NCBI GenBank assembly: GCA_949372805.1
Contig: CASIBH010000004.1
Location: 22,036-86,035 of the forward strand
Direction: 5' to 3'
DNA from: an uncultured Flavobacteriales bacterium
GTDB taxonomy: Bacteria > Bacteroidota > Bacteroidia > Flavobacteriales > BACL11
DNA: 64,000 nucleotides
In this document: positions 1,164 through 28,922 of the stretch, one piece after another
Numbering within the stretch: the stretch's first letter is position 1
Layout of the letters: each line of letters opens with the position of its first letter
Notes under the pieces: generated by a model
What the model was told of the DNA's origin: nothing
Database searches by the model: none
The model's input: the letters and a program-made list of their open reading frames with translations, nothing else
Translations under genes and position numbers: made by a program

Positions 1164-1168
1164 AATAA

Positions 1169-3732: not shown

Positions 3733-3749
3733 TTAGATAATAATTTACA

Positions 3750-8552: not shown

Positions 8553-11500
8553 ATGAAGAAATTATTGATTCTACTAGTAGCGCTTTGTAGTGTTTTTCAA
8601 ATGCAGGCAACTCACTTGATGGGTGGTGAAATTACATGGGAGTGCATTAAGGTTGGTCCTGATGCTGGAAAGTATATTTTTAAGCTGAAATTATATAGAG
8701 ATTGTGATGGCACTTCTCTAAGTACTTTTGCTCAAACAATTTATGTTTGGGATCACCCTACAGTTACATCTATGTCACTTGACTTTATTTCAAATACAGA
8801 TATTTCGCCTGATTGTGATGTTACTAATAGTGGAAATGCTCAACTAGATTGCTCAACCAATCCTGTTGGAGCAGTTGAAGAATATCTTTATGAATCTCAA
8901 CCTGTTAGTTTGCCAGGCTCTCCGCCAACAACTGGATGGCATTTTACATGGGATTCATGTTGTAGAAATGGTGCAATAACAAATTTAGTTTTATCTAGCA
9001 CAACATCACCTTCTGAAGGTTTTACACTTAGAGCATCGATGTTCCCGTATGTTGATCCTTTAGGTAATCTTATTCCTGCTGAACCATGTTTTGATTCTTC
9101 TCCAATATTTAATGAAAGTCCAAAAACAATTATTTGTACTGGTTACCCTTTTTCCTACTCACATAATGCATCTGACAATGAACTTGATTCAATTTCTTAC
9201 TCATGGGATGAGCCTTTAGATGATTTTGTAGGTAATTTTGATCCTGCTGCAGGAAATCCTGCTTCCTTACCTTGGGTAGCTCCTTATGCTTTTAATAATC
9301 CTTTACCTGGTAATGTCTCACTTAATTCTCAAACTGGAGAAATTTCATATAATTCAAATATTTCAGGAAATTTTGTAACTGTTGTAAGAATAGATGCTTA
9401 TAAGTGTGGGCAAATAGTTGCTTCAATTTACAGAGAGATTCAAGCGGTACTTTTGGCATGTCCATCTTTGTCAGGAAACACACCAAATACACCTCCATCA
9501 ATTGATGCTCCTTTTATAGACCCAATTACTGGCTTGCCTTCATTTAGTACTTCAGTTCCAGCAGGAAGTTTAGTAAGTTTTAATATTACTGGAGTAGATT
9601 CTTTAGATATATACCCAAATGGTGCATCTCAAGAGATTACACTTGAAATAACTGGAGGTCAAATGTCTGGTGATTTTGTAAATATATTTGATTGCGCTGA
9701 ACCTCCTTGTGCTATTTTTAATAACGGCTCGGGTGTAGTGCCTCCTTTTTCTAGTCCTTCGTTTGTAAGCGGATATTTTGAATGGCTTACTGATTGTAAT
9801 CATATTGCTAGTGATGCGGGTTGTGGAACAATTTCAAATCTGTACACATTTGCCATTAAAGCTTATGATGATTTTTGTCCTGCTCCAGCAATTACTTTAG
9901 CAACAATTTCTATTGAAGTAACTGCAGCTCAAGGACTGTCAGAGCCTGATCTTCAGTGTGCATTTTTAAATGGGGCAGGTGATCTTACCCTTGATTGGAA
10001 TTATAGTTTTGGTGGTGATGCATCAACTATTTATCATATCTATGGATCTGATAATATTGGTGGGCCATATTCATTGCTTGAAGATGTTAATTATTCAAAT
10101 CCTAACAATCTTTTATTTCAGACTCATACTATTGATTCTATTAACTTACCAGCGGGTTATCAATTCTTTTATTTAACACAAGAATCTGCTTGTGCAAGTT
10201 CTTCAGTAGAATCTGATACAATTACTCCTATTGAATTTCAAATTTCTCATTCTGATGTTAATTGCTGGGATGATACAGATGGTCGTATAACTGTTGAGGT
10301 TTTAAGTACGATGTTAGCTCCTTTTAGTTATTATCTAAATGGAGTTTTAAATCCAAATCCTATTCCTTATGATACTGTTTTTTCTGATTTAACTGCAGGA
10401 AATTATGTTGTTACAGTTAGTGATAATGGAAGTTGTCAGATTGATCAAACTGTTAATATTACTGCTCCAGGTTCACCACTTCAATCACTTGTTAGCGATA
10501 CAATGAATAACTGTTACGGCAGCAATGATGGTATTGCTATAGGTTCTGGCGCTGGAGGAACTCCTCCTTATTCTTATGAGTGGTTTAACCAAAACTTTGT
10601 CAGCTTTAGTACTAATGATACGGCCTTTAATTTAAGTGCTGGTAGTTATTATTTAGAGGTTAGTGATGCAAATGGATGTGATACTTTCTCTACTGTCCAG
10701 GTTATTGCTCCTCAAACAGCACTTAGTGGATCTCCTCAAGTATTTGGTATTGCTTGTCGAGGTGATAGTACCGGTATGATAATTGGTGATGCCAATGGTA
10801 GCTGGGCTCCATATCAGTATTACTGGATTTCTAGTGCTGGAGATACTCTTCAGTCCACTTCATATACAACAACAAGAGATACTTTAAAAGATTTAAGTTC
10901 TGGCGTTTATACTCTTCATGTTTATGATGCTCAATCTTGTTTTGTGAGCTATAGTTTAAATGTTGGAGAACCAATGACTATGCTTAGTATTGATAGTATT
11001 TTAGTTGTAGAAAATATTGCTTGTTTTGGTGATAGTGTTGGTAAGGCTCGATTATTTGCTAGCGGAGGGATGCCAAACTATAGCTATATGTGGGATAATG
11101 GAGAAACAGGATTGGTAGCACAAAATTTATCTGCGGGATATCGTCATCTTACGCTTACTGATGATTGGGGCTGTGAGGTTGTTGATAGTGTTTATATTTC
11201 AGAGAATCCAGAGATACAATCTACTATTAGCGTTGTTCAGACAGTTAGCTGTTATGGGCAGTCTGATGGTATTGCAAGTATTAGTTCTGTTGGAGGTATT
11301 CCAACATACACTTACTTTTGGAGTAATGGTCATACAGGTCTTAGCATGCCAGATACTTCTTCAGGTCTTGTTGAAGGGAGTTATTATGTAACTACAAGAG
11401 ATGTAATAGGCTGTGAGGTTGTTGATAGTGTTTATGTGTCAGAGCCAGAGCCACTTTCTATGATAGCAAATGAGCTAGTATGGATCTCATGCTTTGGAGC

Positions 11501-13415
11501 TAATGATGGTCTTGCTTATGCAAGCGGTTTAGGAGGAAATCTTCCATATACATTTACTTGGATGACTAATGGTCAGATAGGAGATACAATTAACACTGTT
11601 CATCCAGGACTACATACTGTAGAAGTTGTTGATGCAAGAGGATGTACATCAAGTGATACAATTTTTATGCATGAGCCAACAGAGCTTCATGTAAACATAG
11701 ATGATAACTTCACAATACTTCCTTACTGTATCGGAGTAAATAGTGCAAGCTTAACATCTTTAGCTACAGGAGGAACACCAGGATATAGTTATGCTTGGGA
11801 TGATAACTTAGTAGCACCACAACTTACAGCAACAGCTAGTCATCTTTTAGCAGGAGTTTATACGGTTACTGCAACAGACTCAAGAGGATGTACAGCAAGT
11901 GATAGTAGAGATATTGATACAATAACTAATACAATGAGTGCTTTTGTTTTAGAGATAGACAATGTAAGCTGCTTTGGATATAATAATGGATCTGCAGTTG
12001 TTAATGCATCAGGAGCGCATGCTCCATATTCATACCAATGGTTTGGTCCAAATGGCTACTCAAGTGTGAATGATAGTGTAGCTAATTTATATGCTGAAAA
12101 TTATTCTGTAACAGTATCAGATACTAATAACTGTATGGTTAATACAAGTATTAATTTAAGTGAGCCAGCAGCTATTACATACAATACTTTATCTTCCACA
12201 GATGCAGTATGTCTTGGGTCTTGTGATGGAAGTGTTCTTTTAGACTTTACAGGAGGAAGTGCTCCATATTATGGTCATGCTTTAGATAATAATACTGGAG
12301 CTGTAACAATGAATTTATTGAGCGATAGTTTATTCTCAGGAATTTGTGCAGGTAATTATACTGTCAGCTTAACAGATGCTAATGACTGTCCTTCTTACCT
12401 GGTGAATGGAGGGAATAATCAGCATGATATAACTGCTTTAGATACTATCTTCACAGCTCTTTCCTCAAATGGAAATATGATTTTATGCTATGGTGATGCT
12501 ACAGCAAGTCTTTCTATTGACTTAAATTACTTTAATAACACTTATTCTTACTCTTGGGAGAATGTTTTAAGCCCTGGCGTTAGTCTTGGTGCAGGTTCTT
12601 CTTTGGTAGGTCTGGAGTCTGGAACATATGTTCTTTTAGCTAACTATATGACTTGTCATGCAAGTGATACAATGACTATTACAGAGCCTGATTCACTTAC
12701 TATCTTAGGAAATGTAGTTGATGCAGATTGCTATGGTGCAAGTACAGGCTCTATAACAACAAATATTAGTGGTGGATCATTGGGTTATGTGTATAATTGG
12801 TCTGGAAGTTCAAGTACCAATAATAATTTAAATAATGTTTCTGCAGGAGTTTATACTTTAACCGTAAGTGATATGTATTCTTGTGAGTACTCACAAACAT
12901 TTGTAGTTGGCGAGCCACAAGAGATAACAGCTACGATAAATCAAAATTCATCTAACACTTACTTATTAGAATCTAATAATGTAAATGGAGGAGTTGCACC
13001 ATATGTTCATTCTTGGAGAGAAGCATCTGCTCCAAATGTTCAGCTAGCAACCGGAACAACTTATACTGTTAGTAGCTATGGCGATTACTTTGTAAGAGTA
13101 ACAGATGCTCAAGGTTGTACTAGCGAGTCCAATAGTATAGAGTTCATCTCTACCACTATAAATGAAGTAGGATCAAGCTTAGAGGTAAGTGTTTATCCAA
13201 ATCCATTTAGATCAGAAGCTGTAGTTGACTTTGGAAGAGTAGTTGAGAGTGCAAGCTTGACGATAGTGGATATGTATGGTAAGGTAATAGAGCGTCATTT
13301 AGTTGGAAATAGTGATAGATACATTATTACCAACAAAGATAAAGCTAGTGGAGTTTATTTCTTGAAAATAGAAACAAGAGAAGGAAATATGTTTGTTAAA
13401 TTAGTTATAAAATAA
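8553..13415 (+). CDS. SprB-repeat surface protein A with T9SS type A sorting domain (1620 aa)
   Basis: Signal peptide, THLMGGEITWECI head, many SprB repeats (xxVSCFGxxDGxAxxxxxGGxxPYxYxW...LxxGxYxVxVxDxxGC), C-terminal VSVYPNPFRSEAVVDFG...GVYFLKIETREGNMFVKLVIK. Confidence 0.9.
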   Translation: MKKLLILLVALCSVFQMQATHLMGGEITWECIKVGPDAGKYIFKLKLYRDCDGTSLSTFAQTIYVWDHPTVTSMSLDFISNTDISPDCDVTNSGNAQLDCSTNPVGAVEEYLYESQPVSLPGSPPTTGWHFTWDSCCRNGAITNLVLSSTTSPSEGFTLRASMFPYVDPLGNLIPAEPCFDSSPIFNESPKTIICTGYPFSYSHNASDNELDSISYSWDEPLDDFVGNFDPAAGNPASLPWVAPYAFNNPLPGNVSLNSQTGEISYNSNISGNFVTVVRIDAYKCGQIVASIYREIQAVLLACPSLSGNTPNTPPSIDAPFIDPITGLPSFSTSVPAGSLVSFNITGVDSLDIYPNGASQEITLEITGGQMSGDFVNIFDCAEPPCAIFNNGSGVVPPFSSPSFVSGYFEWLTDCNHIASDAGCGTISNLYTFAIKAYDDFCPAPAITLATISIEVTAAQGLSEPDLQCAFLNGAGDLTLDWNYSFGGDASTIYHIYGSDNIGGPYSLLEDVNYSNPNNLLFQTHTIDSINLPAGYQFFYLTQESACASSSVESDTITPIEFQISHSDVNCWDDTDGRITVEVLSTMLAPFSYYLNGVLNPNPIPYDTVFSDLTAGNYVVTVSDNGSCQIDQTVNITAPGSPLQSLVSDTMNNCYGSNDGIAIGSGAGGTPPYSYEWFNQNFVSFSTNDTAFNLSAGSYYLEVSDANGCDTFSTVQVIAPQTALSGSPQVFGIACRGDSTGMIIGDANGSWAPYQYYWISSAGDTLQSTSYTTTRDTLKDLSSGVYTLHVYDAQSCFVSYSLNVGEPMTMLSIDSILVVENIACFGDSVGKARLFASGGMPNYSYMWDNGETGLVAQNLSAGYRHLTLTDDWGCEVVDSVYISENPEIQSTISVVQTVSCYGQSDGIASISSVGGIPTYTYFWSNGHTGLSMPDTSSGLVEGSYYVTTRDVIGCEVVDSVYVSEPEPLSMIANELVWISCFGANDGLAYASGLGGNLPYTFTWMTNGQIGDTINTVHPGLHTVEVVDARGCTSSDTIFMHEPTELHVNIDDNFTILPYCIGVNSASLTSLATGGTPGYSYAWDDNLVAPQLTATASHLLAGVYTVTATDSRGCTASDSRDIDTITNTMSAFVLEIDNVSCFGYNNGSAVVNASGAHAPYSYQWFGPNGYSSVNDSVANLYAENYSVTVSDTNNCMVNTSINLSEPAAITYNTLSSTDAVCLGSCDGSVLLDFTGGSAPYYGHALDNNTGAVTMNLLSDSLFSGICAGNYTVSLTDANDCPSYLVNGGNNQHDITALDTIFTALSSNGNMILCYGDATASLSIDLNYFNNTYSYSWENVLSPGVSLGAGSSLVGLESGTYVLLANYMTCHASDTMTITEPDSLTILGNVVDADCYGASTGSITTNISGGSLGYVYNWSGSSSTNNNLNNVSAGVYTLTVSDMYSCEYSQTFVVGEPQEITATINQNSSNTYLLESNNVNGGVAPYVHSWREASAPNVQLATGTTYTVSSYGDYFVRVTDAQGCTSESNSIEFISTTINEVGSSLEVSVYPNPFRSEAVVDFGRVVESASLTIVDMYGKVIERHLVGNSDRYIITNKDKASGVYFLKIETREGNMFVKLVIK
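10516..13381 (+). repeat. Long direct repeat, copy 1 (3' stalk plus CTD of protein A)
   Basis: Near-identical to 22536-25401 at constant offset 12,020 (no net indel); only about 5 mismatches seen by eye. Confidence 0.95.
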
Positions 13416-13471
13416 ATTATAAATTAGCTATCAGACATACTCTAGTAATTATTAGTTATTTAATTTAAGAG

Positions 13472-13479
13472 TATATTTG
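13472..13479 (+). promoter_or_regulatory. Putative -7 element TATATTTG upstream of the second SprB-repeat gene
   Basis: TAnnTTTG about 38 bp before the ATG at 13517. Confidence 0.4.
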
Positions 13480-13516
13480 CAAGGCTAGGATTTTAAGAAT
13501 TCAATAAATTTGAAAA

Positions 13517-16500
13517 ATGAAGAATAAAAATATTAGAATGAATAACAGAAAATCATTTTTGGAAAGTACCTCTTTAATTAAGAAGGTACTATTTCTGCTT
13601 TTAGGGATATGTATAAGTTTAAATATTAATGCCCAGTCAATAACAGTTGGAAGTATTGCGGCAACTAATACTTTTACAGCAGATGGAAAAGCATATGTTG
13701 TGGTATCAGGTGTTCCTGGTGGATTGAATAATTATACATGGACCAACTTAAGTTCAGGAGCTCAAGCATCATTCACATCATCCACTGATTTTACAGATAC
13801 TCTAACAGATTTTTCTGGAACTTATGAGATAAGTGTGGATAATTTTGATTTTGGATTTTCAGCTGTTGATACAATAACAATTACTGCTCCTGGAGCAACT
13901 TTTAGCTACAACGGATCTTTTGTGCTTTGTGGTGGTCTTACTAATGCTTTTATAACAGCTTTTGTTCAGGGATGTGCTGTTCTTGGACCAACTCTTGGAA
14001 CTAATTATTTATTAACTGATGCCTCGAATAACACAATATTATTAGATTCAATAGCGCCAACTACTGCCATGCCTCTTCCGCCACTTGTTGTTGGTACATA
14101 TTACTTATCATCTACAAATTTAGATAATGGATGTGTTGGGTTTGATACCTTTGATATTACTGCAGGTCTTTTAAATGTTTCTACTTTCAGTACAAATGTT
14201 CTTAACAATACTCTTGGATTATTTACTATAACAGCTTCTGGAGGCTCGTCTCCTTATACACTTGATTGGCAAGGGCAAAATCTTCCGACATGGAATAATG
14301 GGGATACATTAATTGGACTTCCTGCAGGAACATATTTTTTTACAGTTTCAAGCTCTGATGGTTGTACGTATTCTGATTCTGTTATCATTCAGAACACATG
14401 TGATGGACAGATTACAAGCATTAATTATGATCCTTGTGCTCCAGAGGTTTTTGTTAGTGCTGCTATCAATATGGTAGGGTCTGGACCATTTGATTTTGAC
14501 TATGAATTATCTGATGGCTCATCTGTTGTGGCATTTGAAAATTCTACTGCTTCAAATATAACTTTCTCAAACAGCGTTGGCTCTGGAACATTTTATTTAA
14601 ATATTACTGAGACTAATACAGGATGTATTGTTACAGATACAATTACTCATACTTTAAATCCTGTTTTTGTTTCTTCCTCAATAACTGATGTAACTTCTGT
14701 TGGAGCTTGTGATGGAGGTGTTTTTGTGACCCCTACCTCAGGACAATTTCCTTATACATTTGAGTGGAGTAATTCTACTGGAATTATTTCTACAACTAAT
14801 GGACCATTTACACAGCTTACAAATCTTTGTGATGATACATATTGTTTAGTTATAACTGATGATAATGGATGTACTTTTACCGAGTGTTATGATGTTCTTT
14901 ATTACCCTTGTAATGTTACCCTTTCTATTTTTGATTCAATTAATTGTTATAATGGTTTTGGAGCTATTCAAGTAAATATTGATACAACAGGAAATCCTGG
15001 AGGACCTTATGAATACACATTGTTTAATGCAAATAATGGAAACCAAATAGGAAATCCTCAAGTTAATGTTAATACTCAATTTACTTTTCCAAATTTACCT
15101 ACAGGCAATTATTTTGTTAATGTTTTTGATCCAGCCTTTGGGAGTTACTGTAAGCCTGATACAATTATATTAACAGAGCCTGATCAAATTAACGTTTGGA
15201 CAACTGTTGATAGTTCATCTGCTGTTTGTGCTGAAGATGGAATTATTACTATTGATTCTATAACTGGAGGAACAAATCCATTTAATATTACTTGGTTAGA
15301 TTCCATTCTTTCTCCTTTACCAACTATAGCAGATACAAATATTAATGGAAATGTTTTTCAAGATTCCTTATTATATTCAAATGAAAATACAAATGGATAT
15401 TTAATCTTAATTACTGACGCAAATGGTTGTTCAAGAAATCAAACTGTTTACATCCACCCACAAAATTCTGGAGCTGACTTTGCTATCGAGAGCTGGGAAG
15501 TGACTCAGCCAAAATGCTATGGTGCCTGTGACGGAGGAATTCTTGCAACAATGGCTGGAATGCCAAATGGTTGTTTATCTGTTCCTCCTTTTACATTTTA
15601 CTGGATAGATGGTGCTACTGGTGGAGCTGGACAAGTAGCAGATACCTTAAAAGTAGATTCAGTTGGAACTCTTTTTTATAATCCCTCTCATGTAGCTACT
15701 TATGTTAATTTATGTCCTGGTTCTTATCAATTACATGCTTATGATTACTATGGTAATTTTGGAGGAATACAAAATTTTGATGTTTTTGAGCCTGATTCAA
15801 TTACTATTGCCTTAAGTGATAGCCTAGAGCTATTTTGTGGTGAAGAACAATTTGTTTTATCAAATGTTAGTGGTGGACCAACAGTAAATGATACAACTCT
15901 AATTTCAAGTAATACGCTAGACTTTGGAATTCCAAGTGGGTTTCAGGATAGTTTAAACATAAATGATTACTATCTTTTAGTAGTAAGTGGAACATATGAA
16001 GATACTGCAGGTAACTTGTATGATGCTGCATGGGATTACACTGCTTTTCCTGGCGCTCCAGCTACTCCTGTGATGCACTGGGCATTTGATGGTAATTTCA
16101 CTCATAGACCTTTTCCAGATGCTTTTAACTTAGATCATACTTATACCTTTCCATTTGTTTCTCAAACTGGTGTTCACAATTTTGCAATGACTCAGCCTGG
16201 TTTCTTGCAACCTGGAGCTACTGGAATGCAATTTGATTTATATCTTGTGCGATATGATACTACCATTTTTTCATATCAGTGGGAATATCTAAATGCAACC
16301 GGTACTGCTAATATTGGGAATACTGATTCTGTTTTAGTATACCCTTACTACGGAGGACAATATGAACCAACAGATTATATTGTTACTGTTACTGATATAA
16401 CAGGCTCCTGTTCAAAATCTGATCAAATACACGTTTCATGGGATTTAGGCATTTTAAGTTTTGACACTATAGGAAACTCTTTAGTTTCATGCTATGGCGA

Positions 16501-19500
16501 TTCTTCTTCAACTATTATATTAGCAATTGATACGACTTCATCTGGCACTAATACCCCTGGTTTTGCACCCTACATTTTCTATCTTGATGGTGACTCTACT
16601 TTAACTTCTCCATCAAATTATAGCGATACAATTGAAAATGTTCCTGCAGGTACTCATACTGTTAGCATTTCAGATTCTTTAGGATGTCTTTCCAGAGAAA
16701 TATCAATTGATGTCATACAATCAGATTCCTTATATGCATGTGGAGTAGATTCTAATTATATAGAGGTTATGGTGGATAATTTTAATATGACTTTTGATAA
16801 TCCATATCTTCATACCTCAGTTGTTCCTACGTTACTTGGAATGAATTACCGACTAAAAGTTAGTGGTACTTACAACGATTCTTGGTCAGGATCAAATTAT
16901 AAAGATGCTGCATACATATATAATATAAATCCTCCAACTGGTAATATTGATTGGATGATGAATGGCTCAAGTCTTTTTTACCCTACTCCAAATCAGTACA
17001 ATTCATCACATGAATATGTATTTGAGTTTGTTGGAGATGGTGATTCTATTGATTTTACATATAATGATTACTTTGATTCTCTGTATGTGAATAATAGTGG
17101 ACTTTTATCATTTGAGCTTTATAAAATGGTTTGTCCAAATACCGATACTGCATTTACTTGCTTTGGTGATTCAACTGCTTCATCTAATGTGTATCCAACA
17201 GGAGGAACGCCTTTTGATCCTGATGGCTTTGCTAATTCAGGAGATGAGTTTTATAATATAGTTTGGAAAGATTTTTCTGGAAGTGCTACAAATCTTGCTG
17301 GTGATCCTTGGGGTACTGGTCAAACAGTTTCTAATCTTCCTGCCGGAACATATTTTGCTTATATTACAGATGCTCTTGGATGTGAATATGTTAGAACTCT
17401 AATTGTTCAAGAATCTGCTGTTGCAATGAATATAGATACTATTTATCCAACACCTGTTGCTTGTCGAAATGACTCCTCAGGATGTATTTCTGCTGTTGTT
17501 TCTGGTGGTTTTACTGATAATATTGTTGTTGTAATTTCTGCAGGAGATACTATTTATACTGATCAAGGTGATCTTGACACTATTCAAATTTGTGGTTTAG
17601 TCGCTGGTACATATCAGTTTTATATTTATGACTCTCCAGATGCAAGTTTTGCTGATTATGATTGTGCAGAGTTTGCAGAAATAATAATAACTCAGCCTCA
17701 AGATATTTTATCTACCTCAGTAAACTTATTATCTGATGTTCAATGTTTTGGAGATTCTACAGGAGCTGCAATTGCTAATGCTATTGGTGGACAGTTTCCT
17801 TATTCATATAATTGGCTTGCAGGAAATACTTCTGCTATAGTTAATAATCTATGGCCAGGATGGCAGGTTGTTGAAATAAGCGATAGCAATGGATGTGTCA
17901 AGCTTGATAGTATCGAAATAATAAATTTATATCCAGAGATCTCAAGTGTTCTTGACGTTATACAAGATGTTTCTTGCTTTGGGGGATGTGATGCAATAGC
18001 AAGCTTGTCAACAAATGGAGGAGTGCTTCCTCATACTTACTTCTGGGATATTGGTCAGGTATCTATTAATATGCCTGATACAGCATTTAACCTTTGTTAT
18101 GGAGGGCATGATGTAATTGTTGAAGATGCTCTTGGATGTAGACAAACAGTTACCTACAATATAAGTCAACCTGACGAGCTCTTTGCTCAAGCAGTTATGA
18201 CTCAACCAATCCAATGTTTTGGTTTTGATGATGGAACTGCTTTTGCTTCAGCTACTGGGGGAACACAATTTTATTCTTTTGTTTGGGATAGTATTAATGG
18301 ACAAGCAGGACAGAACGCTACTAATCTTACTCCAGGATTGCATTATGTGTATGTTACTGATGCTAAAGGGTGTACTGCAATGGACTCTGTTAATATTTCT
18401 GAGCCAACGCAATTAACAATTGCAATAGATGATACAATGACGGTTTACTCTTATTGTGCTGGAACAAATTCTGGTCAATTATGTGCTATAGCTGATGGAG
18501 GAACACCAAACTATAATTATGTTTGGAATGATGTATTGGGACAAACAGGAACATGTGCTACAAATTTAATTGCTAGTCAGTATACAGTATTAGTAATGGA
18601 TGATAGAAACTGTATTGCAACTGTATCCTTTAATTTAGATTCTATTACTAATAGTATGGACCCTGACTCAGTTGGTATATCTATTGATGATGTAAGTTGT
18701 TTTGGGACTTTTGATGGTTCTGTTTCAATTACTACTGTTGTTGGAGCTGTTGCACCATATACTTATTCATGGACAGGTCCTAATAGTTATAGTTCTGTGC
18801 TTTCATCAATCAGTTCACTCTATGCTGGAAGTTATGGAGTTGTAATTGAAGATTCTAATGGATGTGCTATAACAGTAAATGCAGAAGTACAACAGCCTGA
18901 TCAATTAGAATATACTACATATAATGTAGAAAGTTCTACTTGTCTAGGAGCTTGTGATGGAGAAATACATGTTAGTATTGAAGGTGGTACTCATCCATAT
19001 TTTTATGATTTAGACCAGCAAGGAACATTTCCTCTAATGAATACTTCACCAGTTATAAACGATACTTTAATAACTAATTTATGTGCTGGACTTCGTTCAA
19101 TATATATTACAGATGATAATAATTGTGAAGGAACAGTCGTTTGGGGTGGAAGATGGGAAGAAACAGTTGATCAAGGAGTTGTTGTTGAACTTGACTCTGT
19201 TGTAGCAAGTCCTGCAACGTGCTTTAATTTAAATGATGGTTCTGCTTTTATTCATGGTCAAGGAAATCCATTATTCACATATACTTGGGAAACAAATGAT
19301 ATTGCAACAAATCTTCCAACAGGAACTGTTTTAGGTAATGGTATTGCATATAATAATTTTTACCCTGGAACATATTGGGCAGTAGCTCACTATGCTGATT
19401 CATCAAGTTTTGGTGTTCCCTATTCAGGATGTGATTTTGGATATCAATTTACAATTTCAAGTGCTGCACAATTAACAACTGCCGCTACAAATGTTACTGA

Positions 19501-20980
19501 GGTTACTTGCTATGGTGATACAGATGGGGAGATTGATCTAATAATTTCGGGAGGAACTGCTCCATACTCAGTGCAGTGGGATACAACAACATCTCTTCCA
19601 AATGGATCAAGTGCTTTACAAGTTAACTCATTGCAGCCTGGAACATATACGGCAAATATATTTGATAATAATGGATGTAGTATAACTTCAGACTTTGAGA
19701 TAACTGAGCCTTTAGCAATAACAAATTACTATACAGTAACTGAGCCTTTATGTAATGGCGGATCAGATGGTTCTGCAATAGCAAATACAAATGGTGGAAA
19801 TGCTCCATATACATATAACCCAAATATTAGTAATAATCTTTCTGCAGGAATTTACTCTGTAGTTGTAATGGATAACAAAGGATGTACCTTCTTAGATGAA
19901 GTAACAATAACAGAACCTGATGCTGTTATCTCTTCTGTAGAATCAGATAATTTATTCTTTGGGCCTTATGATGTACGATGTTTCGGAGAAAATAATGCCT
20001 CTGCTACAGTTACTGGAGGTGGTGGAGTGCCAGTTATTTCTTATCTATGGACTCCTTCTAATCAATCAACTGCTACAGCAACAAATTTATCTGCCGGCTC
20101 TTATGATGTCACCGTTACAGATTTAAATAATTGTTCTCAAACTGAAACAATATTAATAACAGAACCAGATCAATTAGTTATTAATTTAACTAGAAGTGGA
20201 GATAATGCACCGTTCTATGATATTAGTTGTTTTGGCTTAAACGATGGTTGGGCACAATCTCTTCCAATAGGAGGTGTTGAAGGTACTTCAGGATATAATT
20301 ACCAATGGGATGTTAGTGGAAGTAATATTTCTTCAAACTACTATATTGATAATTTACAAGCTGGTCTTGCATATACAATCACTGTAGTTGATGTAAATGG
20401 ATGTGAGGAGACTGAGTCTACACCAATTCTAACAGAGCCAATTGAATTTATTGCAAATGTTATTTCTGATGATTATGCAGGTCCTACTCATGAAGGCTTT
20501 ACTGTTAACTTTACTGATTTAACTGTATGTTCTGATCCTTACAACTTTGAATGGACGTGGCTTAATGGAACAACTACTAATCCTTCTGGCACAACTAATT
20601 TTAATCATATGTTTGATATAATTGGTTTGAATGAAGTTTATGTAACTCTTGAAAATGAGGTGACACTTTGTACTGATACTGTTGGCTTTAATATTGAAGT
20701 TCAAGGAATTCCAGAAATATATAATGTTTTCTCTCCAAACGGAGATGGTGTTAATGATTTATTTGGTTTTGGAGAATATGCAATGGAGGCTATGCAAGTA
20801 GAATTTTTTAACAGATGGGGTGAGTTAGTTTACTCATTGGATTTATCTGGACAAGATTGGGACGGTAGAGGTCTTGACGGTAGAGATCTTCCTGAGGGAG
20901 TGTACTTCTATGTTCTTCAGTCTACAGGTCTAGATGGAAGATACTATGAAAAAAGAGGTTCAGTCACAATATTGAGATAA
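13517..20980 (+). CDS. Giant SprB-repeat surface protein B with gliding-motility-type (T9SS type B) C-terminal domain (2487 aa)
   Basis: SprB repeats throughout; C-terminus IPEIYNVFSPNGDGVNDLFGF...VEFFNRWGELVYS...WDGRGLDGRDLPEGVYFYVL...KRGSVTILR. Confidence 0.9.
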   Translation: MKNKNIRMNNRKSFLESTSLIKKVLFLLLGICISLNINAQSITVGSIAATNTFTADGKAYVVVSGVPGGLNNYTWTNLSSGAQASFTSSTDFTDTLTDFSGTYEISVDNFDFGFSAVDTITITAPGATFSYNGSFVLCGGLTNAFITAFVQGCAVLGPTLGTNYLLTDASNNTILLDSIAPTTAMPLPPLVVGTYYLSSTNLDNGCVGFDTFDITAGLLNVSTFSTNVLNNTLGLFTITASGGSSPYTLDWQGQNLPTWNNGDTLIGLPAGTYFFTVSSSDGCTYSDSVIIQNTCDGQITSINYDPCAPEVFVSAAINMVGSGPFDFDYELSDGSSVVAFENSTASNITFSNSVGSGTFYLNITETNTGCIVTDTITHTLNPVFVSSSITDVTSVGACDGGVFVTPTSGQFPYTFEWSNSTGIISTTNGPFTQLTNLCDDTYCLVITDDNGCTFTECYDVLYYPCNVTLSIFDSINCYNGFGAIQVNIDTTGNPGGPYEYTLFNANNGNQIGNPQVNVNTQFTFPNLPTGNYFVNVFDPAFGSYCKPDTIILTEPDQINVWTTVDSSSAVCAEDGIITIDSITGGTNPFNITWLDSILSPLPTIADTNINGNVFQDSLLYSNENTNGYLILITDANGCSRNQTVYIHPQNSGADFAIESWEVTQPKCYGACDGGILATMAGMPNGCLSVPPFTFYWIDGATGGAGQVADTLKVDSVGTLFYNPSHVATYVNLCPGSYQLHAYDYYGNFGGIQNFDVFEPDSITIALSDSLELFCGEEQFVLSNVSGGPTVNDTTLISSNTLDFGIPSGFQDSLNINDYYLLVVSGTYEDTAGNLYDAAWDYTAFPGAPATPVMHWAFDGNFTHRPFPDAFNLDHTYTFPFVSQTGVHNFAMTQPGFLQPGATGMQFDLYLVRYDTTIFSYQWEYLNATGTANIGNTDSVLVYPYYGGQYEPTDYIVTVTDITGSCSKSDQIHVSWDLGILSFDTIGNSLVSCYGDSSSTIILAIDTTSSGTNTPGFAPYIFYLDGDSTLTSPSNYSDTIENVPAGTHTVSISDSLGCLSREISIDVIQSDSLYACGVDSNYIEVMVDNFNMTFDNPYLHTSVVPTLLGMNYRLKVSGTYNDSWSGSNYKDAAYIYNINPPTGNIDWMMNGSSLFYPTPNQYNSSHEYVFEFVGDGDSIDFTYNDYFDSLYVNNSGLLSFELYKMVCPNTDTAFTCFGDSTASSNVYPTGGTPFDPDGFANSGDEFYNIVWKDFSGSATNLAGDPWGTGQTVSNLPAGTYFAYITDALGCEYVRTLIVQESAVAMNIDTIYPTPVACRNDSSGCISAVVSGGFTDNIVVVISAGDTIYTDQGDLDTIQICGLVAGTYQFYIYDSPDASFADYDCAEFAEIIITQPQDILSTSVNLLSDVQCFGDSTGAAIANAIGGQFPYSYNWLAGNTSAIVNNLWPGWQVVEISDSNGCVKLDSIEIINLYPEISSVLDVIQDVSCFGGCDAIASLSTNGGVLPHTYFWDIGQVSINMPDTAFNLCYGGHDVIVEDALGCRQTVTYNISQPDELFAQAVMTQPIQCFGFDDGTAFASATGGTQFYSFVWDSINGQAGQNATNLTPGLHYVYVTDAKGCTAMDSVNISEPTQLTIAIDDTMTVYSYCAGTNSGQLCAIADGGTPNYNYVWNDVLGQTGTCATNLIASQYTVLVMDDRNCIATVSFNLDSITNSMDPDSVGISIDDVSCFGTFDGSVSITTVVGAVAPYTYSWTGPNSYSSVLSSISSLYAGSYGVVIEDSNGCAITVNAEVQQPDQLEYTTYNVESSTCLGACDGEIHVSIEGGTHPYFYDLDQQGTFPLMNTSPVINDTLITNLCAGLRSIYITDDNNCEGTVVWGGRWEETVDQGVVVELDSVVASPATCFNLNDGSAFIHGQGNPLFTYTWETNDIATNLPTGTVLGNGIAYNNFYPGTYWAVAHYADSSSFGVPYSGCDFGYQFTISSAAQLTTAATNVTEVTCYGDTDGEIDLIISGGTAPYSVQWDTTTSLPNGSSALQVNSLQPGTYTANIFDNNGCSITSDFEITEPLAITNYYTVTEPLCNGGSDGSAIANTNGGNAPYTYNPNISNNLSAGIYSVVVMDNKGCTFLDEVTITEPDAVISSVESDNLFFGPYDVRCFGENNASATVTGGGGVPVISYLWTPSNQSTATATNLSAGSYDVTVTDLNNCSQTETILITEPDQLVINLTRSGDNAPFYDISCFGLNDGWAQSLPIGGVEGTSGYNYQWDVSGSNISSNYYIDNLQAGLAYTITVVDVNGCEETESTPILTEPIEFIANVISDDYAGPTHEGFTVNFTDLTVCSDPYNFEWTWLNGTTTNPSGTTNFNHMFDIIGLNEVYVTLENEVTLCTDTVGFNIEVQGIPEIYNVFSPNGDGVNDLFGFGEYAMEAMQVEFFNRWGELVYSLDLSGQDWDGRGLDGRDLPEGVYFYVLQSTGLDGRYYEKRGSVTILR

Positions 20981-21100
20981 TTAAGAAATTTATAAAAATA
21001 TATTTTTTGTTTAATGATTATGCGGTTAGATTTCCTAAATGAAAAGTGATTTTTATTTAAAAGAAAAAGTTGATTAGAAATATTTAAAAAACTATATGAT

Positions 21101-24100
21101 ATGAAAAGAATTATTTTAATTGCTTTGTTATTACCATGCTTTATTAGTGCACAAGTAATAATTTCTAATGATACTACTGTTTGTGGTAATTTCAATGATA
21201 CTCTATATGCTTTGAGTGCAACACAATCTTCTATGCAAACCGATGATTTACATGATGATCTAGTTTCTATTGGATTCACATTTAATTTCTATGGAACTCC
21301 TTATACTGAATGTGTAGTTTCAGGAAATGGCTATGTTACATTTGATACTTCATTAGCTAATTCATATTCTCCTTATTCTATAAATGCTCCTGTGCCAAAT
21401 CCTGGTAATATTCCTGAAAATGCTATTTTAGCTCCTTGGCAAGATATTAATACTGGTGTTACTGGTAATATTTATTATGGAACAACTGGTATAGCACCAA
21501 ACAGAATGTTTACCGTAACATGGTGTGAAATTGCTATGTTTTCTTGTACAGCTGATTTACATACTTCACAAGTTGTTTTACATGAAGGGTCTGATAAGAT
21601 TGAAATGTTTATTGCCGAAAAACCACTTTGTGCAGCATGGAATGGAGGTGCTGCTATTCAGGGTTTAGTGTCTGATGCTAGCACATTTGCTGATATTGTA
21701 TTTGACCCAATTCTATTAGCTGATAGAAATTATCCTTTGCAGTGGACTGCAACTAATGAGGGATGGGAGTTTTTAACTGCTGGATCTTCAGCCTATGTTA
21801 TTAATCAAATTCCTTTTATACCAATTGTTGCAGGTGAAGCTATTTGGACTTCAGCATCTGGAGATACTTTAGGATATGGGCCTACACTGCCAGTAAATAT
21901 TTCCTCTACAACAGTTTATTATGCTGATGTTGTTGGTAGCTGCTCCTCGGGAATACTTTCTGATCAAGTTACTGTTTCAGTTTCTGGTTGTTTTGCAATA
22001 GTTTTGAGTTCCTCTGATGCTTCCTGTCAAGGAAATGACGGTCAGGTTAGTGTTGATCCTGGTATAAATACACCTTCTCCTTATGATATGTTGCTTTTAG
22101 ATATGAATGGAGTTATTTTACAATCTAATCTTAATGTCAGTTCTTCTCAAACTTTTTCAAATCTTTTTCCTGGAACTTATGTTGCAAGGGTTACAGATGC
22201 TGGAGGTTCTTCTTCTCAAGATACAATTGTAGTCATGCAAGCAAATAATCCTTTAAATGTTTCTTCATTTGCAAATAATGTTAATTGTTACAATGGTCAA
22301 GATGGTCAAATTTCTATTTTAGCAGATAGTGGAGCGCTTCCTTATTCATTTTATCTAAATGGAGTTTTAAATACTAATCCTATTCCTTACGATAGTGTTT
22401 TTTCAAACTTGTCTGAAGGGGTTTATATTGTTTCTGTTTTAGATGATAATAGTTGTTTATTTAGAGATACTATTAATTTAACCTCTCCACAATATACTTT
22501 ACAATCTTTAGCTCAATCTAAAGTTGTTATTTGTAACGGCAGCAATGATGGAATAGCTATAGGTTCTGGCGCTGGAGGAACTCCTCCTTATTCTTATGAG
22601 TGGTTTAACCAAAACTTTGTCAGCTTTAGTACTAATGACACGGCCTTTAATTTGAGTGCTGGTAGTTATTATTTAGAGGTTAGTGATGCAAATGGATGTG
22701 ATACTTTCTCTACTGTCCAGGTTATTGCTCCTCAAACAGCACTTAGTGGATCTCCTCAAGTATTTGGTATTGCTTGTCGAGGTGATAGTACCGGTATGAT
22801 AATTGGTGATGCCAATGGTAGCTGGGCTCCATATCAGTATTACTGGATTTCTAGTGCTGGAGATACTCTTCAGTCCACTTCATATACAACAACAAGAGAT
22901 ACTTTAAAAGATTTAAGTTCTGGCGTTTATACTCTTCATGTTTATGATGCTCAATCTTGTTTTGTGAGCTATAGTTTAAATGTTGGAGAACCAATGACTA
23001 TGCTTAGTATTGATAGTATTTTAGTTGTAGAAAATATTGCTTGTTTTGGTGATAGTGTTGGTAAGGCTCGATTATTTGCTAGCGGAGGGATGCCAAACTA
23101 TAGCTATATGTGGGATAATGGAGAAACAGGATTGGTAGCACAAAATTTATCTGCGGGATATCGTCATCTTACGCTTACTGATGATTGGGGCTGTGAGGTT
23201 GTTGATAGTGTTTATATTTCAGAGAATCCAGAGATACAATCTACTATTAGCGTTGTTCAGACAGTTAGCTGTTATGGGCAGTCTGATGGTATTGCAAGTA
23301 TTAGTTCTGTTGGAGGTATTCCAACATACACTTACTTTTGGAGTAATGGTCATACAGGTCTTAGCATGCCAGATACTTCTTCAGGTCTTGTTGAAGGGAG
23401 TTATTATGTAACTACAAGAGATGTAATAGGCTGTGAGGTTGTTGATAGTGTTTATGTGTCAGAGCCAGAGCCACTTTCTATGATAGCAAATGAGCTAGTA
23501 TGGATCTCATGCTTTGGAGCTAATGATGGTCTTGCTTATGCAAGCGGTTTAGGAGGAAATCTTCCATATACATTTACTTGGATGACTAATGGTCAGATAG
23601 GAGATACAATTAACACTGTTCATCCAGGACTACATACTGTAGAAGTTGTTGATGCAAGAGGATGTACATCAAGTGATACAATTTTTATGCATGAGCCAAC
23701 AGAGCTTCATGTAAACATAGATGATAACTTCACAATACTTCCTTACTGTATCGGAGTAAATAGTGCAAGCTTAACATCTTTAGCTACAGGAGGAACACCA
23801 GGATATAGTTATGCTTGGGATGATAACTTAGTAGCACCACAACTTACAGCAACAGCTAGTCATCTTTTAGCAGGAGTTTATACGGTTACTGCAACAGACT
23901 CAAGAGGATGTACAGCAAGTGATAGTAGAGATATTGATACAATAACTAATACAATGAGTGCTTTTGTTTTAGAGATAGACAATGTAAGCTGCTTTGGATA
24001 TAATAATGGATCTGCAGTTGTTAATGCATCAGGAGCGCATGCTCCATATTCATACCAATGGTTTGGTCCAAATGGCTACTCAAGTGTGAATGATAGTGTA

Positions 24101-25435
24101 GCTAATTTATATGCTGAAAATTATTCTGTAACAGTATCAGATACTAATAACTGTATGGTTAATACAAGTATTAATTTAAGTGAGCCAGCAGCTATTACAT
24201 ACAATACTTTATCTTCCACAGATGCAGTATGTCTTGGGTCTTGTGATGGAAGTGTTCTTTTAGACTTTACAGGAGGAAGTGCTCCATATTATGGTCATGC
24301 TTTAGATAATAATACTGGAGCTGTAACAATGAATTTATTGAGCGATAGTTTATTCTCAGGAATTTGTGCAGGTAATTATACTGTCAGCTTAACAGATGCT
24401 AATGACTGTCCTTCTTACCTGGTGAATGGAGGGAATAATCAGCATGATATAACTGCTTTAGATACTATCTTCACAGCTCTTTCCTCAAATGGAAATATGA
24501 TTTTATGCTATGGTGATGCTACAGCAAGTCTTTCTATTGACTTAAATTACTTTAATAACACTTATTCTTACTCTTGGGAGAATGTTTTAAGCCCTGGCGT
24601 TAGTCTTGGTGCAGGTTCTTCTTTGGTAGGTCTGGAGTCTGGAACATATGTTCTTTTAGCTAACTATATGACTTGTCATGCAAGTGATACAATGACTATT
24701 ACAGAGCCTGATTCACTTACTATCTTAGGAAATGTAGTTGATGCAGATTGCTATGGTGCAAGTACAGGCTCTATAACAACAAATATTAGTGGTGGATCAT
24801 TGGGTTATGTGTATAATTGGTCTGGAAGTTCAAGTACCAATAATAATTTAAATAATGTTTCTGCAGGAGTTTATACTTTAACCGTAAGTGATATGTATTC
24901 TTGTGAGTACTCACAAACATTTGTAGTTGGCGAGCCACAAGAGATAACAGCTACGATAAATCAAAATTCATCTAACACTTACTTATTAGAATCTAATAAT
25001 GTAAATGGAGGAGTTGCACCATATGTTCATTCTTGGAGAGAAGCATCTGCTCCAAATGTTCAGCTAGCAACCGGAACAACTTATACTGTTAGTAGCTATG
25101 GCGATTACTTTGTAAGAGTAACAGATGCTCAAGGTTGTACTAGCGAGTCCAATAGTATAGAGTTCATCTCTACCACTATAAATGAAGTAGGATCAAGCTT
25201 AGAGGTAAGTGTTTATCCAAACCCATTTAGATCAGAAGCTGTAGTTGACTTTGGAAGAGTAGTTGAGAGTGCAAGCTTGACGATAGTGGATATGTATGGT
25301 AAGGTAATAGAGCGTCATTTAGTTGGAAATAGTGATAGATACATTATTACCAACAAAGATAAAGCTAGTGGAGTTTATTTCTTGAAAATAGAAACAAGAG
25401 ATTTATCATATAATTCAAAAATTATCATCAAGTAA
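21101..25435 (+). CDS. SprB-repeat surface protein A' with T9SS type A sorting domain (1444 aa)
   Basis: Signal peptide; unique N-terminal beta-rich head (FTFNFYGTPYTECVVSGNGYVTFDT...APWQDINTGVTGNIYYGTTG); C-terminal ~955 aa identical to protein A. Confidence 0.9.
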   Translation: MKRIILIALLLPCFISAQVIISNDTTVCGNFNDTLYALSATQSSMQTDDLHDDLVSIGFTFNFYGTPYTECVVSGNGYVTFDTSLANSYSPYSINAPVPNPGNIPENAILAPWQDINTGVTGNIYYGTTGIAPNRMFTVTWCEIAMFSCTADLHTSQVVLHEGSDKIEMFIAEKPLCAAWNGGAAIQGLVSDASTFADIVFDPILLADRNYPLQWTATNEGWEFLTAGSSAYVINQIPFIPIVAGEAIWTSASGDTLGYGPTLPVNISSTTVYYADVVGSCSSGILSDQVTVSVSGCFAIVLSSSDASCQGNDGQVSVDPGINTPSPYDMLLLDMNGVILQSNLNVSSSQTFSNLFPGTYVARVTDAGGSSSQDTIVVMQANNPLNVSSFANNVNCYNGQDGQISILADSGALPYSFYLNGVLNTNPIPYDSVFSNLSEGVYIVSVLDDNSCLFRDTINLTSPQYTLQSLAQSKVVICNGSNDGIAIGSGAGGTPPYSYEWFNQNFVSFSTNDTAFNLSAGSYYLEVSDANGCDTFSTVQVIAPQTALSGSPQVFGIACRGDSTGMIIGDANGSWAPYQYYWISSAGDTLQSTSYTTTRDTLKDLSSGVYTLHVYDAQSCFVSYSLNVGEPMTMLSIDSILVVENIACFGDSVGKARLFASGGMPNYSYMWDNGETGLVAQNLSAGYRHLTLTDDWGCEVVDSVYISENPEIQSTISVVQTVSCYGQSDGIASISSVGGIPTYTYFWSNGHTGLSMPDTSSGLVEGSYYVTTRDVIGCEVVDSVYVSEPEPLSMIANELVWISCFGANDGLAYASGLGGNLPYTFTWMTNGQIGDTINTVHPGLHTVEVVDARGCTSSDTIFMHEPTELHVNIDDNFTILPYCIGVNSASLTSLATGGTPGYSYAWDDNLVAPQLTATASHLLAGVYTVTATDSRGCTASDSRDIDTITNTMSAFVLEIDNVSCFGYNNGSAVVNASGAHAPYSYQWFGPNGYSSVNDSVANLYAENYSVTVSDTNNCMVNTSINLSEPAAITYNTLSSTDAVCLGSCDGSVLLDFTGGSAPYYGHALDNNTGAVTMNLLSDSLFSGICAGNYTVSLTDANDCPSYLVNGGNNQHDITALDTIFTALSSNGNMILCYGDATASLSIDLNYFNNTYSYSWENVLSPGVSLGAGSSLVGLESGTYVLLANYMTCHASDTMTITEPDSLTILGNVVDADCYGASTGSITTNISGGSLGYVYNWSGSSSTNNNLNNVSAGVYTLTVSDMYSCEYSQTFVVGEPQEITATINQNSSNTYLLESNNVNGGVAPYVHSWREASAPNVQLATGTTYTVSSYGDYFVRVTDAQGCTSESNSIEFISTTINEVGSSLEVSVYPNPFRSEAVVDFGRVVESASLTIVDMYGKVIERHLVGNSDRYIITNKDKASGVYFLKIETRDLSYNSKIIIK
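22536..25401 (+). repeat. Long direct repeat, copy 2 (3' stalk plus CTD of protein A')
   Basis: See copy 1; divergence is abrupt at both edges. Confidence 0.95.
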
Positions 25436-25637: not shown

Positions 25638-26012
25638 ATGCCTACAATACAACAACTAGTAAGAAAAGGGAGAGTAACTGTTAAGAAAAAGAGTAAATCT
25701 TTAGCTTTACAAAGTTGCCCTCAAAGAAGGGGAGTTTGTACAAGAGTTTATACAACTACTCCAAAGAAACCAAATTCAGCTTTAAGAAAAGTTGCCAGAG
25801 TTAGATTAACTAATGGTAATGAAGTTAATGCTTATATTGGTGGTGAAGGACACAATCTTCAAGAATATTCAGTTGTATTAGTAAGAGGTGGTAGAGTAAA
25901 AGATTTACCTGGTGTTAGATATCATATTGTTAGAGGTGCATTAGATACTTCTGGAGTAAATGAAAGAACACAACGTAGATCAAAATATGGAGCTAAGCGT
26001 CCTAAGAAATAA
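25638..26012 (+). CDS. rpsL: 30S ribosomal protein S12
   Basis: [12 protein letters not shown]...[21 protein letters not shown]. Confidence 0.98.
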
Positions 26013-26022
26013 AATATAGATA

Positions 26023-26493
26023 ATGAGAAAGAAAAAGGCTAAAAAAAGAATATTACTTCCAGATCCAAGATTTGGAAGTCCTTTAGTTACAAGATTTGTA
26101 AATAACTTAATGTATGGTGGAAGAAAGAATACTGCATTTAAAGTTTTTTATACTGCTTTAGAGACTGTAGCAGAGAAAATTGAAGATGTTACAAATCTTG
26201 AAGTTTTTGAAAAATCGTTAGAAAATGTTAGTCCTAATGTTGAAGTTAGAAGTAGAAGAATTGGGGGAGCAACTTTTCAAATACCTCATCCAGTAAGAGA
26301 AGATAGAAAAGTTTCTCTTGGAATGAAATGGATGATAGCTGCGGCAAGAAAAAGAAATGAAAAAACAATGGATGAAAAATTGTCTGGTGAGATAATGGCT
26401 GCATACAAAGAAGAAGGAGCTGCGTATAAGAAGAAACAAGATACTCATAGAATGGCGGAAGCTAACAAAGCATTTTCACACTTTAGATTTTAA
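26023..26493 (+). CDS. rpsG: 30S ribosomal protein S7
   Basis: MRKKKAKKRILLPDPRFGSPLVTRFVNNLM. Confidence 0.98.
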   Translation: MRKKKAKKRILLPDPRFGSPLVTRFVNNLMYGGRKNTAFKVFYTALETVAEKIEDVTNLEVFEKSLENVSPNVEVRSRRIGGATFQIPHPVREDRKVSLGMKWMIAAARKRNEKTMDEKLSGEIMAAYKEEGAAYKKKQDTHRMAEANKAFSHFRF

Positions 26494-26502
26494 ATTATAG
26501 AA

Positions 26503-28605
26503 ATGGCAAGAGACTTAAAATATACAAGAAATATTGGTATCGCAGCTCATATTGACGCTGGTAAAACTACTACTACAGAAAGGATCCTTTACTATGGAGG
26601 TGTGAATCATAAAATTGGTGAAGTACACGATGGCGCAGCAACTATGGATTGGATGGAACAAGAGCAAGAGAGAGGAATTACAATTACTTCTGCAGCAACT
26701 ACTCTAGGCTGGGATTATAGAGGTAAAAACTATCACGTTAATATTATTGATACACCTGGACACGTTGATTTTACTGTAGAAGTAAATAGATCTCTTAGAG
26801 TGCTAGATGGTTTAGTTTTCTTATTTAGCGCTGTTGATGGGGTTGAGCCACAATCTGAAACAAACTGGAGACTTGCAAATAATTATAATGTACCAAGAAT
26901 TGGTTTTGTAAATAAAATGGATAGACAAGGTGCTAATTTTCTTAAAGTTTCTGCTCAAGTAAAAGAAATGTTAGGAAGTCATGCTCTTCCGTTGCAAATC
27001 CCAATTGGTTCTGAAGATGAATTTAAAGGAGTTGTTGATTTAATAAATTTCAAGGGAATTGTTTGGAATGAAGAAGATCAGGGAATGACATATGAAGAAG
27101 TTGAAATACCAGCAGATATTATTGATGAAGCAAGAGAATACAGAGGGCAGCTTTTAGAGGCTGTAGCAGAATTTGATGAGTCATTAATGGAAAAATATTT
27201 TGAAGATGAAAATTCTCTTACTGAAGCTGAAATTCTTGCAGCATTAAGAGAAGCGACAATTTCTGGTAAAGTTGTGCCTATGATGTGTGGTTCAGCTTTT
27301 AAAAATAAAGGTGTTCAGGCGATGTTAGATATGGTCATGGAAATATTACCTTCTCCCTTAGATGTTGAAGGTATAAGTGGAACGAATCCTGATAACGATT
27401 CTGAAGAAATTAGACAACCTTCTGCTACTGAACCATTTGCTGCATTAGCATTTAAAATTGCAACAGATCCTTATGTTGGTCGTTTATGTTTTACTAGAGC
27501 TTATTCAGGCACATTAGATCAAGGAACTTTTGTTTTAAATACTAGAACAGGTAAAAAAGAAAGAATTTCTAGAATTTATCAAATGCATTCAAACAAGCAA
27601 AACCAAATTGATTCACTTCAGGCAGGTGATATTGCTGCTTTAGTTGGTTTTAAAGATATTAGAACAGGTGATACATTATGTGCTTTAAAGTCACCAATTG
27701 TTTTAGAATCAATGGATTTTCCAGAACCAGTTATTGGAATTGCTATTGAACCTAAGACTCAGAAAGATTTAGATAAACTTGGAGTTGCTTTAGGAAAACT
27801 AACTGAAGAAGATCCTACTTTTTCAGTTAAAACTGATGAAGATTCTGGACAAACTATTATTTCTGGAATGGGTGAATTACACTTAGATATTATTCTAGAT
27901 AGGTTGAAGAGAGAATTTGATGTAGAATGTAATCAAGGAGCTCCACAAGTCGCTTACAAAGAAGCTATTACAGCATTGGTTGAGCATAGAGAAGTATACA
28001 AGAAACAATCTGGTGGTAGAGGAAAGTTTGCTGATATTAAATTTGATATATCACCTGTTGATTCTGACTTCGAAGGTGAAGGTTTACAGTTTGTAAATGA
28101 AATTAAAGGTGGTAATATTCCTAAAGAATTTATCCCATCAGTTGAGAAAGGTTTTAAAATGTCTATGACTAATGGAGTATTAGCCGGTTTCCCTCTAAAC
28201 TCTATGAAAGTAAGACTATATGATGGTTCTTATCATGATGTGGATTCAGATGCGCTTTCATTTGAGCTTTGTGCTCAGATTGCTTTTAAATCTGCTGCAA
28301 AGCAAGCATCTCCAGTTTTACTAGAACCAATAATGAAATTAAATGTTATTACTCCAGAAACAAATATGGGAGATGTTATTGGAGATTTAAATAGAAGGAG
28401 AGGGCAAGTAGAGGGAATGGAGGATAAGGCTGGTGCAAAAGTTGTTAATGCTAAAGTTCCACTTTCAGAAATGTTCGGTTACATAACAGACTTAAGAACA
28501 ATTACATCAGGTAGAGCTACATCGACTATGGAGTTTTCATCATTTGAAAATGCTCCAAAAAATGTTTCAGATGAAGTAATATCTAATATTAAAGGAGATA
28601 AATAA
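26503..28605 (+). CDS. fusA: Elongation factor G
   Basis: [22 protein letters not shown]...; intact 700 aa. Confidence 0.98.
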
Positions 28606-28613
28606 ATATACTT

Positions 28614-28922
28614 ATGGCACAAAAAGTTAGAATAAAGCTTAAATCATTTGATCACAACTTAGTTGATCAATCGGCTGAGAAGATTGTAAAGACTGTAAAG
28701 AATTCAGGTGCAATTATTAGTGGTCCAATTCCACTTCCAACACACAAAAGAATTTATACTGTTTTGAGATCCCCTCACGTAAATAAGCAAGCAAGAGAGC
28801 AATTTCAACTTGCAAATCATAGAAGATTAATGGATATATATTCTTCATCTTCTAAGACAATTGATGCACTTATGAAGTTAGAATTGCCAAGTGGTGTTAA
28901 AGTAGAAATTAAAGTAATTTAA
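28614..28922 (+). CDS. rpsJ: 30S ribosomal protein S10
   Basis: [22 protein letters not shown]. Confidence 0.98.

What the first reader, a model, noticed from the sequence alone, without database searches (positions are those of the whole stretch)
10516..25401. Two SprB-repeat adhesins share a near-identical 2.87 kb stalk/CTD but have unrelated heads
Genes A (8553-13415) and A' (21101-25435) have different N-terminal heads. From GSNDGIAIGSG to KIETR (~955 aa) they are identical in protein. At DNA level I see only five differences: two in GGTATTGCT/GGAATAGCT, GAT/GAC, TTA/TTG and AAT/AAC. All are synonymous, and four lie within ~130 bp of the left edge. Upstream of the edge the genes are still homologous (YLNGVLNPNPIPYDTVF vs YLNGVLNTNPIPYDSVF) but much diverged. 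Similarity also stops sharply a few codons before the stops. An abrupt jump from moderate to ~99.8% identity is a hallmark of recent gene conversion, pointing to a cassette-like head/stalk arrangement on surface proteins.
Basis: partly seen in the sequence, partly recalled or inferred. Interest (0 to 1): 0.8.

Follow-up and report, generated by a model that had tools for sequence, protein, structure and literature searches.

The report
Adhesin pair with homogenised shared stalk
Two neighbouring sticky surface proteins of an uncultured marine bacterium have different tips but almost the same 950-residue stalk, and comparison with related species shows that the bacteria have kept re-copying the stalk DNA from one gene to the other through the divergence of many genera while the tips stayed different.

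Summary
In detail: window 10516-13381 and 22536-25401 match without gaps at offset 12,020 and differ at five synonymous sites, while the flanks drop to about 50-70% identity and then to no detectable similarity. The gene-conversion reading is supported and can be strengthened: it is recurrent. The same A-M-A' trio lies directly upstream of rpsL-rpsG-fusA in relatives. In eight other species the stalks within a genome are 98.2-100% identical over 2-3 kb, with dS 0-0.015 in the pairs measured. Orthologous stalks in different species have dS 0.15-1.6. Trees switch across the boundary: the repeat just upstream sorts mainly by head type, the stalk sorts by genome. Four unrelated head types (A, nidogen-like B, choice-of-anchor-L C, reelin-like X) carry this stalk, and slot 1 holds A, C or X depending on lineage. 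One lineage (G010, G033) has escaped. Two corrections: the 'recent' event is the latest of many, and the exact count of five differences is unsafe, because all five sit within 181 nt of a tract edge, as short-read repeat collapse would give. Segment-limited concerted evolution is known for Helicobacter babA/babB and Leptospira ligA/ligB. This appears to be a new, unusually old case in T9SS/SprB-repeat proteins. What the heads bind is unknown.

The parts
8553..13415 (+). Gene A: 1620-aa SprB-repeat protein, head A + stalk + T9SS type A C-terminal domain
8553..10515 (+). Head A (about 655 aa, includes one diverged SprB repeat next to the boundary); orthologous across the family, no Pfam domain besides that repeat
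10516..13381 (+). Homogenised tract, copy 1: SprB-repeat stalk and most of the T9SS type A sorting domain
13191..13412 (+). T9SS type A C-terminal sorting domain of A (PF18962 / TIGR04183)
13517..20980 (+). Gene M: 2487-aa SprB-repeat protein with T9SS type B (CHU_C) C-terminus; its C-terminal half is a distant paralogue of the stalk (34-37% aa) and is not homogenised
21101..25435 (+). Gene A' (called B in the comparison): 1444-aa SprB-repeat protein, head B + stalk + T9SS type A C-terminal domain
21101..22535 (+). Head B (about 479 aa), weak nidogen-like match (PF06119, below cut-off); orthologous across the family, unrelated to head A apart from the last SprB repeat
22536..25401 (+). Homogenised tract, copy 2
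25638..28922 (+). rpsL, rpsG, fusA, rpsJ: the conserved downstream anchor of the adhesin locus in relatives

Best explanation
A and A' are surface adhesin-like proteins exported by the type IX secretion system. Each has its own N-terminal head on a common stalk of SprB repeats ending in a type A sorting domain. Shown: the two-gene locus, with both heads and gene M, is ancestral, and the stalks, but not the heads, are repeatedly homogenised at the DNA level within each lineage, i.e. segment-limited concerted evolution. Inferred: homologous recombination (RecA-type gene conversion, or unequal exchange between sister chromosomes) copies one stalk over the other; the tract stops where sequence similarity becomes too low, at the head on the left and at the last ~11 codons on the right, and not at a site-specific junction. 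Also inferred: keeping one stalk per genome preserves a matched length and secretion/anchoring module, and provides the homology by which a new head can be placed on the same stalk, as the A-to-C and A-to-X replacements at slot 1 suggest.
For: Conserved synteny: A-M-B directly upstream of rpsL in G032, G009 and G045, with the tract ending beside rpsL in G000 and G001; A-M-B-C in G011, C-M-B in G041. Within-genome stalk dS is 0-0.015 in eight genomes; between orthologues it is 0.45 (G000-G001), 0.15 (G009-G020) and 0.9-1.6 between more distant genomes. Heads and M between G000 and G001 have dS 0.59-0.63, so synonymous sites are not frozen. The stalk tree joins copies by genome (A needs 11 changes). 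In the tree of the single repeat left of the boundary all 11 B copies fall on one side, with only 2 A copies among them, and A needs 5 changes. The left edge of the tract wanders from -198 to +144 nt around the same point, which argues against a site-specific junction. G011 and G045 each carry a third gene, with a different head, on nearly the same stalk. Contigs of G014, G035 and G025 share exact 99-bp overlaps at the stalk, as assembly graphs do at repeats.
Against: No recombination event was observed directly, and no reads or populations were examined. Interior identity may be inflated by collapse in the short-read assemblies. The advantage of keeping stalks alike is an inference; neutral conversion would look the same. 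Adhesin function rests on domain content only. Single-gene arrangements (G046) show the pair can be lost.
Confidence: 0.9

Rival explanations
1. Assembly artefact: the stalks are really different and a short-read assembler collapsed them into one sequence that was written out twice.
For: All five differences in this window lie within 181 nt of a tract edge; in the single-cell assemblies G009, G032 and G020 the differences are likewise within about 320 nt of the left edge or at the right end; a direct-repeat loop can be walked twice by an assembler.
Against: Near-identity recurs in independent assemblies of different kinds. G001 (FRAM18_bin220) comes from a study that used PacBio HiFi reads averaging 8.6-9.6 kb as well as Illumina, and shows 12 differences spread through the tract (99.58%). 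G011 has three copies in a 1.39-Mb contig. Short-read assemblies did keep copies apart when they differed by 2.2% (G014) or about 25% (G010). Collapse can therefore hide perhaps 1-2%, not the ~10% nt difference that separates even the sister species.
Confidence: 0.05
2. One recent duplication or transfer of the stalk in this species only, not a recurrent process.
For: Within this window alone, one event would suffice to explain the pattern.
Against: The pair with both heads is conserved across genera, and each lineage is homogenised to its own, different stalk sequence. This needs at least one event per lineage.
Confidence: 0.02
3. A programmed switch: recombination between the two direct stalk repeats deletes or circularises the 12-kb M + head B segment, turning head B on and off.
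For: Direct repeats 12,020 bp apart; an A-rpsL arrangement without M or B exists in G046 on a 1.06-Mb contig.
Against: No recombinase or invertible element was identified near the locus; deletion would be irreversible; the A-rpsL contigs of G025 and G044 look like assembly paths through the repeat, because M and B are on separate contigs; G046 is a different species, so its state may simply be a fixed loss.
Confidence: 0.07
4. Strong selection on the stalk sequence itself (protein and codons), without DNA exchange.
For: The stalk protein is identical between the copies.
Against: Orthologous stalks in the sister species differ at about a third of synonymous sites (pS 0.33-0.34) and by 57-58 amino-acid-changing substitutions, so the sequence is free to change.
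Confidence: 0.01

Closest known systems
Helicobacter pylori babA/babB and homA/homB (review PMC3960876, citing Pride and Blaser 2002)
   Same: Paralogous surface adhesin/outer-membrane genes whose 3' segments are alike within a strain while the 5' parts follow locus identity; interpreted as concerted evolution by intragenomic recombination.
   Different: There it is seen between strains of one species with homologous 5' parts. Here it runs across genera, the heads are unrelated, and the proteins are T9SS SprB-repeat proteins, not Hop/Hom barrels.
Leptospira ligA/ligB (review PMC7821625)
   Same: Tandem genes of Ig-like repeat surface proteins with a near-identical shared part and unique remaining parts; gene conversion proposed.
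   Different: There the shared part is the upstream region plus N-terminus; here it is the C-terminal stalk and secretion signal. Different repeat family and secretion route.
Long-lasting concerted evolution in prokaryotes (Wang and Chen 2018, PMC6053082)
   Same: Duplicates older than the species, conserved synteny, homogenised at synonymous sites by recurrent conversion.
   Different: Their 26 cases are mostly members of stable complexes or pathways; 'adhesin', 'surface' and 'Bacteroidetes' do not occur in the main text. Here conversion covers only part of each gene and spares the heads.
SprB of Flavobacterium johnsoniae
   Same: PF13573 SprB repeats in large T9SS-exported surface proteins.
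   Different: Only repeat family and export signal are shared; no gliding role was tested here.

Membership tests
Concerted evolution by gene conversion | Paralogues within a genome more alike than orthologues between species, synonymous sites included | tested here: met
   dS within 0-0.015, between 0.15-1.6; stalk tree by genome
Concerted evolution by gene conversion | Duplication predates the species (conserved synteny, orthologous unconverted flanks) | tested here: met
   Heads A and B orthologous, M between them, rpsL downstream
Concerted evolution by gene conversion | Abrupt tract boundary with a change of phylogeny | tested here: met
Concerted evolution by gene conversion | Direct observation of conversion events or RecA dependence | not testable with these tools
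   no reads, strains or mutants
T9SS cargo, type A CTD | C-terminal Por_Secre_tail domain over the curated cut-off | tested here: met
   PF18962 49.3 and 53.3 bits (cut-off 27), TIGR04183 53.1 and 69.8 bits (cut-off 23)
SprB-repeat proteins | PF13573 repeats over the cut-off | tested here: met
   183 and 192 bits, cut-off 28
SprB gliding adhesin (orthologue) | Role in gliding, association with sprC/sprD/sprF-type genes | not tested
   Neighbours identified here are uvrD-like, two-component and ribosomal genes; the spr genes were not searched for
Site-specific cassette/invertase system | Recombinase gene and fixed recombination site at the boundary | tested here: not met
   No recombinase among the neighbours examined; left edge varies by about 340 nt

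The most novel reading that the evidence does not exclude
The locus is a long-lived head-exchange system: conversion keeps one stalk per genome so that unrelated binding heads (A, B, C, X) can be grafted onto the same secretion-and-stalk module by ordinary homologous recombination, and marine populations exchange or drop heads at this site next to rpsL.
Probability: 0.3. Interest if true: 0.7.

Novelty: new member of a known kind. Interest (0 to 1): 0.5.

Why it matters
Concerted evolution that outlasts genera is rare in bacteria and has been reported mainly for genes of complexes and pathways. Here a surface protein pair keeps one domain identical and its neighbour different for as long as the compared genera have existed, with a lineage that has escaped as a natural control. 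That makes it possible to ask whether identical stalks are selected for (matched length, co-assembly, secretion) or are a by-product of recombination, and whether the shared stalk is the route by which new adhesive heads are acquired. It also warns that short-read MAGs of this group will break or collapse at this locus.

Tried and rejected
Sequence search of solved structures gave nothing useful for heads or stalk. The apparent A-rpsL deletions in G025 and G044 were first taken as pop-outs, but M and B lie on separate contigs and the G025 contigs overlap by exactly 99 bp, so they are more likely assembly paths. Homogenisation of M with the stalk: not seen (34-37% aa). Literature searches found no report of conversion among SprB-repeat genes; the held library is incomplete. 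No paper was found for AC_MB403.

Full report
Observation. Genes A (8553-13415) and A' (21101-25435) were compared base by base. From 10516 to 13381 they match the stretch at +12,020 without gaps, with five differences (10532, 10535, 10619, 10634, 13202); the protein is identical. To the left the last ~90 residues of the heads are still homologous but far diverged (dS 0.71, dN 0.53), and further left nothing aligns. On the right identity stops about 11 codons before the stop. The host is a 1.17-Mb, 64% complete genome in 25 contigs with exactly two copies of this tract.

Anatomy. Both proteins are SprB-repeat proteins with a T9SS type A sorting domain. The gene between them, M (13517-20980), is also an SprB-repeat protein but with a type B domain; its second half is a distant paralogue of the stalk (34-37% aa). 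Directly downstream are rpsL, rpsG, fusA and rpsJ. Upstream, on the other strand, are a UvrD-type helicase, a histidine kinase and a response regulator.

Relatives. The stalk was searched in 80 related genomes and in a genome collection. The trio A-M-B (B = A') is found in the sister species G001 and in other genera (G009, G020, G032, G045, G033). G011 has A-M-B-C, G041 has C-M-B, and G012 has X-M-B. Wherever the sequence reaches that far, rpsL follows. Heads of one kind are orthologous across genera (A 49-95%, B 43-95% identity), while A and B heads share no similarity. Head C is a choice-of-anchor-L domain (NF038133, 200 bits), head X resembles reelin subrepeat B (PF21471, 66 bits), head B weakly resembles nidogen (PF06119, below cut-off) and head A is unassigned.

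Concerted evolution. Within-genome pairs share 2.3-3.1-kb tracts with 1-12 differences in G000, G001, G009, G011 (three copies), G012, G020, G032, G041 and G045 (A/B); the third copy of G045 has 27, mostly one short patch. Within-genome stalk dS in the pairs measured is 0-0.015. Between orthologues it is 0.43-0.46 for G000-G001, 0.15 for G009-G020, 0.48 for G009-G032 and 0.9-1.6 between more distant genomes. Heads and M evolve normally (G000-G001 dS 0.59-0.63). The stalk tree groups copies by genome with high support, whereas the single repeat just left of the boundary groups largely by head type. G010 and G033 are exceptions: their copies are only about 70-78% identical, and in G033 the A copy has an M-like type B end. 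This shows what the pair looks like when homogenisation stops. G014 (2.2% apart) and G025 (partly homogenised, 96.5% over 2.3 kb) are intermediate.

Boundaries. The left tract edge lies within -198 to +144 nt of the same residue in all pairs but is not fixed. The right edge lies in the last ~50 nt of the gene in the A pairs, but extends through the stop for G011 B/C. Wandering edges fit homologous recombination limited by similarity better than a site-specific junction.

Artefact question. All five differences in this window lie within 181 nt of an edge (chance 3e-5 if uniform), and the single-cell assemblies show the same edge bias. Collapse of a 2.9-kb repeat by short reads would produce this, so the interior identity may be overstated. 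It does not undo the conclusion. G001, from a study with PacBio HiFi reads averaging 8.6-9.6 kb beside Illumina (PMC8254474), has 12 differences spread through the tract (99.58%); that MAG has single-base frameshifts in A and M, so a few of the 12 may be errors, though 9 are synonymous. I could not confirm which read type produced this particular bin. Short-read assemblies kept 2.2% (G014) and ~25% (G010) diverged copies apart, so collapse can hide only a small divergence, far below the roughly 10% that separates the sister species.

Mechanism. Shown: old duplication, recurrent DNA-level homogenisation of the stalk only, replacement of heads at slot 1. Inferred: RecA-type gene conversion or unequal exchange between the direct repeats; stalk identity as a substrate for head replacement; an adhesive function. 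The A-to-X change is supported by the homologous upstream neighbour in G012, G035 and G039 (X) and in G009, G010, G025 and G046 (A).

Comparison with the known. H. pylori babA/babB and homA/homB show concerted evolution of the 3' segment only (PMC3960876). Leptospira ligA/ligB share a near-identical part attributed to gene conversion (PMC7821625). Long-lasting concerted evolution is documented for 26 prokaryotic genes (PMC6053082). The present case belongs to that kind. Its distinguishing points are the span across genera, the unrelated heads and the T9SS/SprB context. I found no earlier report for SprB-repeat genes, but the library is incomplete.

Verdict. Real, well explained, a new and instructive member of a known kind; interest 0.5.

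Noticed in passing
L041 (FRAM18_bin220), about 9970, and L050 (reverse strand) about 12620: The sister species' gene A is split by a one-base insertion and its gene M is also split, by what looks like a one-base deletion; probably residual long-read errors, possibly real inactivation.
   Followed up: partly
window 10516-13381 versus sister species: Between-species dS of the stalk (0.43-0.46) is lower than that of heads and M (0.59-0.63), and for G009-G032 0.48 against 1.0 for M; stalk GC is slightly higher (0.367 vs 0.33-0.35). Biased conversion or cross-species exchange of the stalk could cause this.
   Followed up: no
L059 (G033), 114-6041: In G033 gene A carries head A and a stalk followed by an M-like T9SS type B end, a chimera between neighbours, and its stalk is no longer homogenised with B.
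   Followed up: partly
L057:1711-6393 (G045): A third gene with a choice-of-anchor-L head carries the same stalk about 70 kb away from the main locus, so conversion also acts at a distance.
   Followed up: partly
window 59480-64000: Another large minus-strand SprB-repeat protein (at least 1506 aa) runs off the contig end.
   Followed up: no
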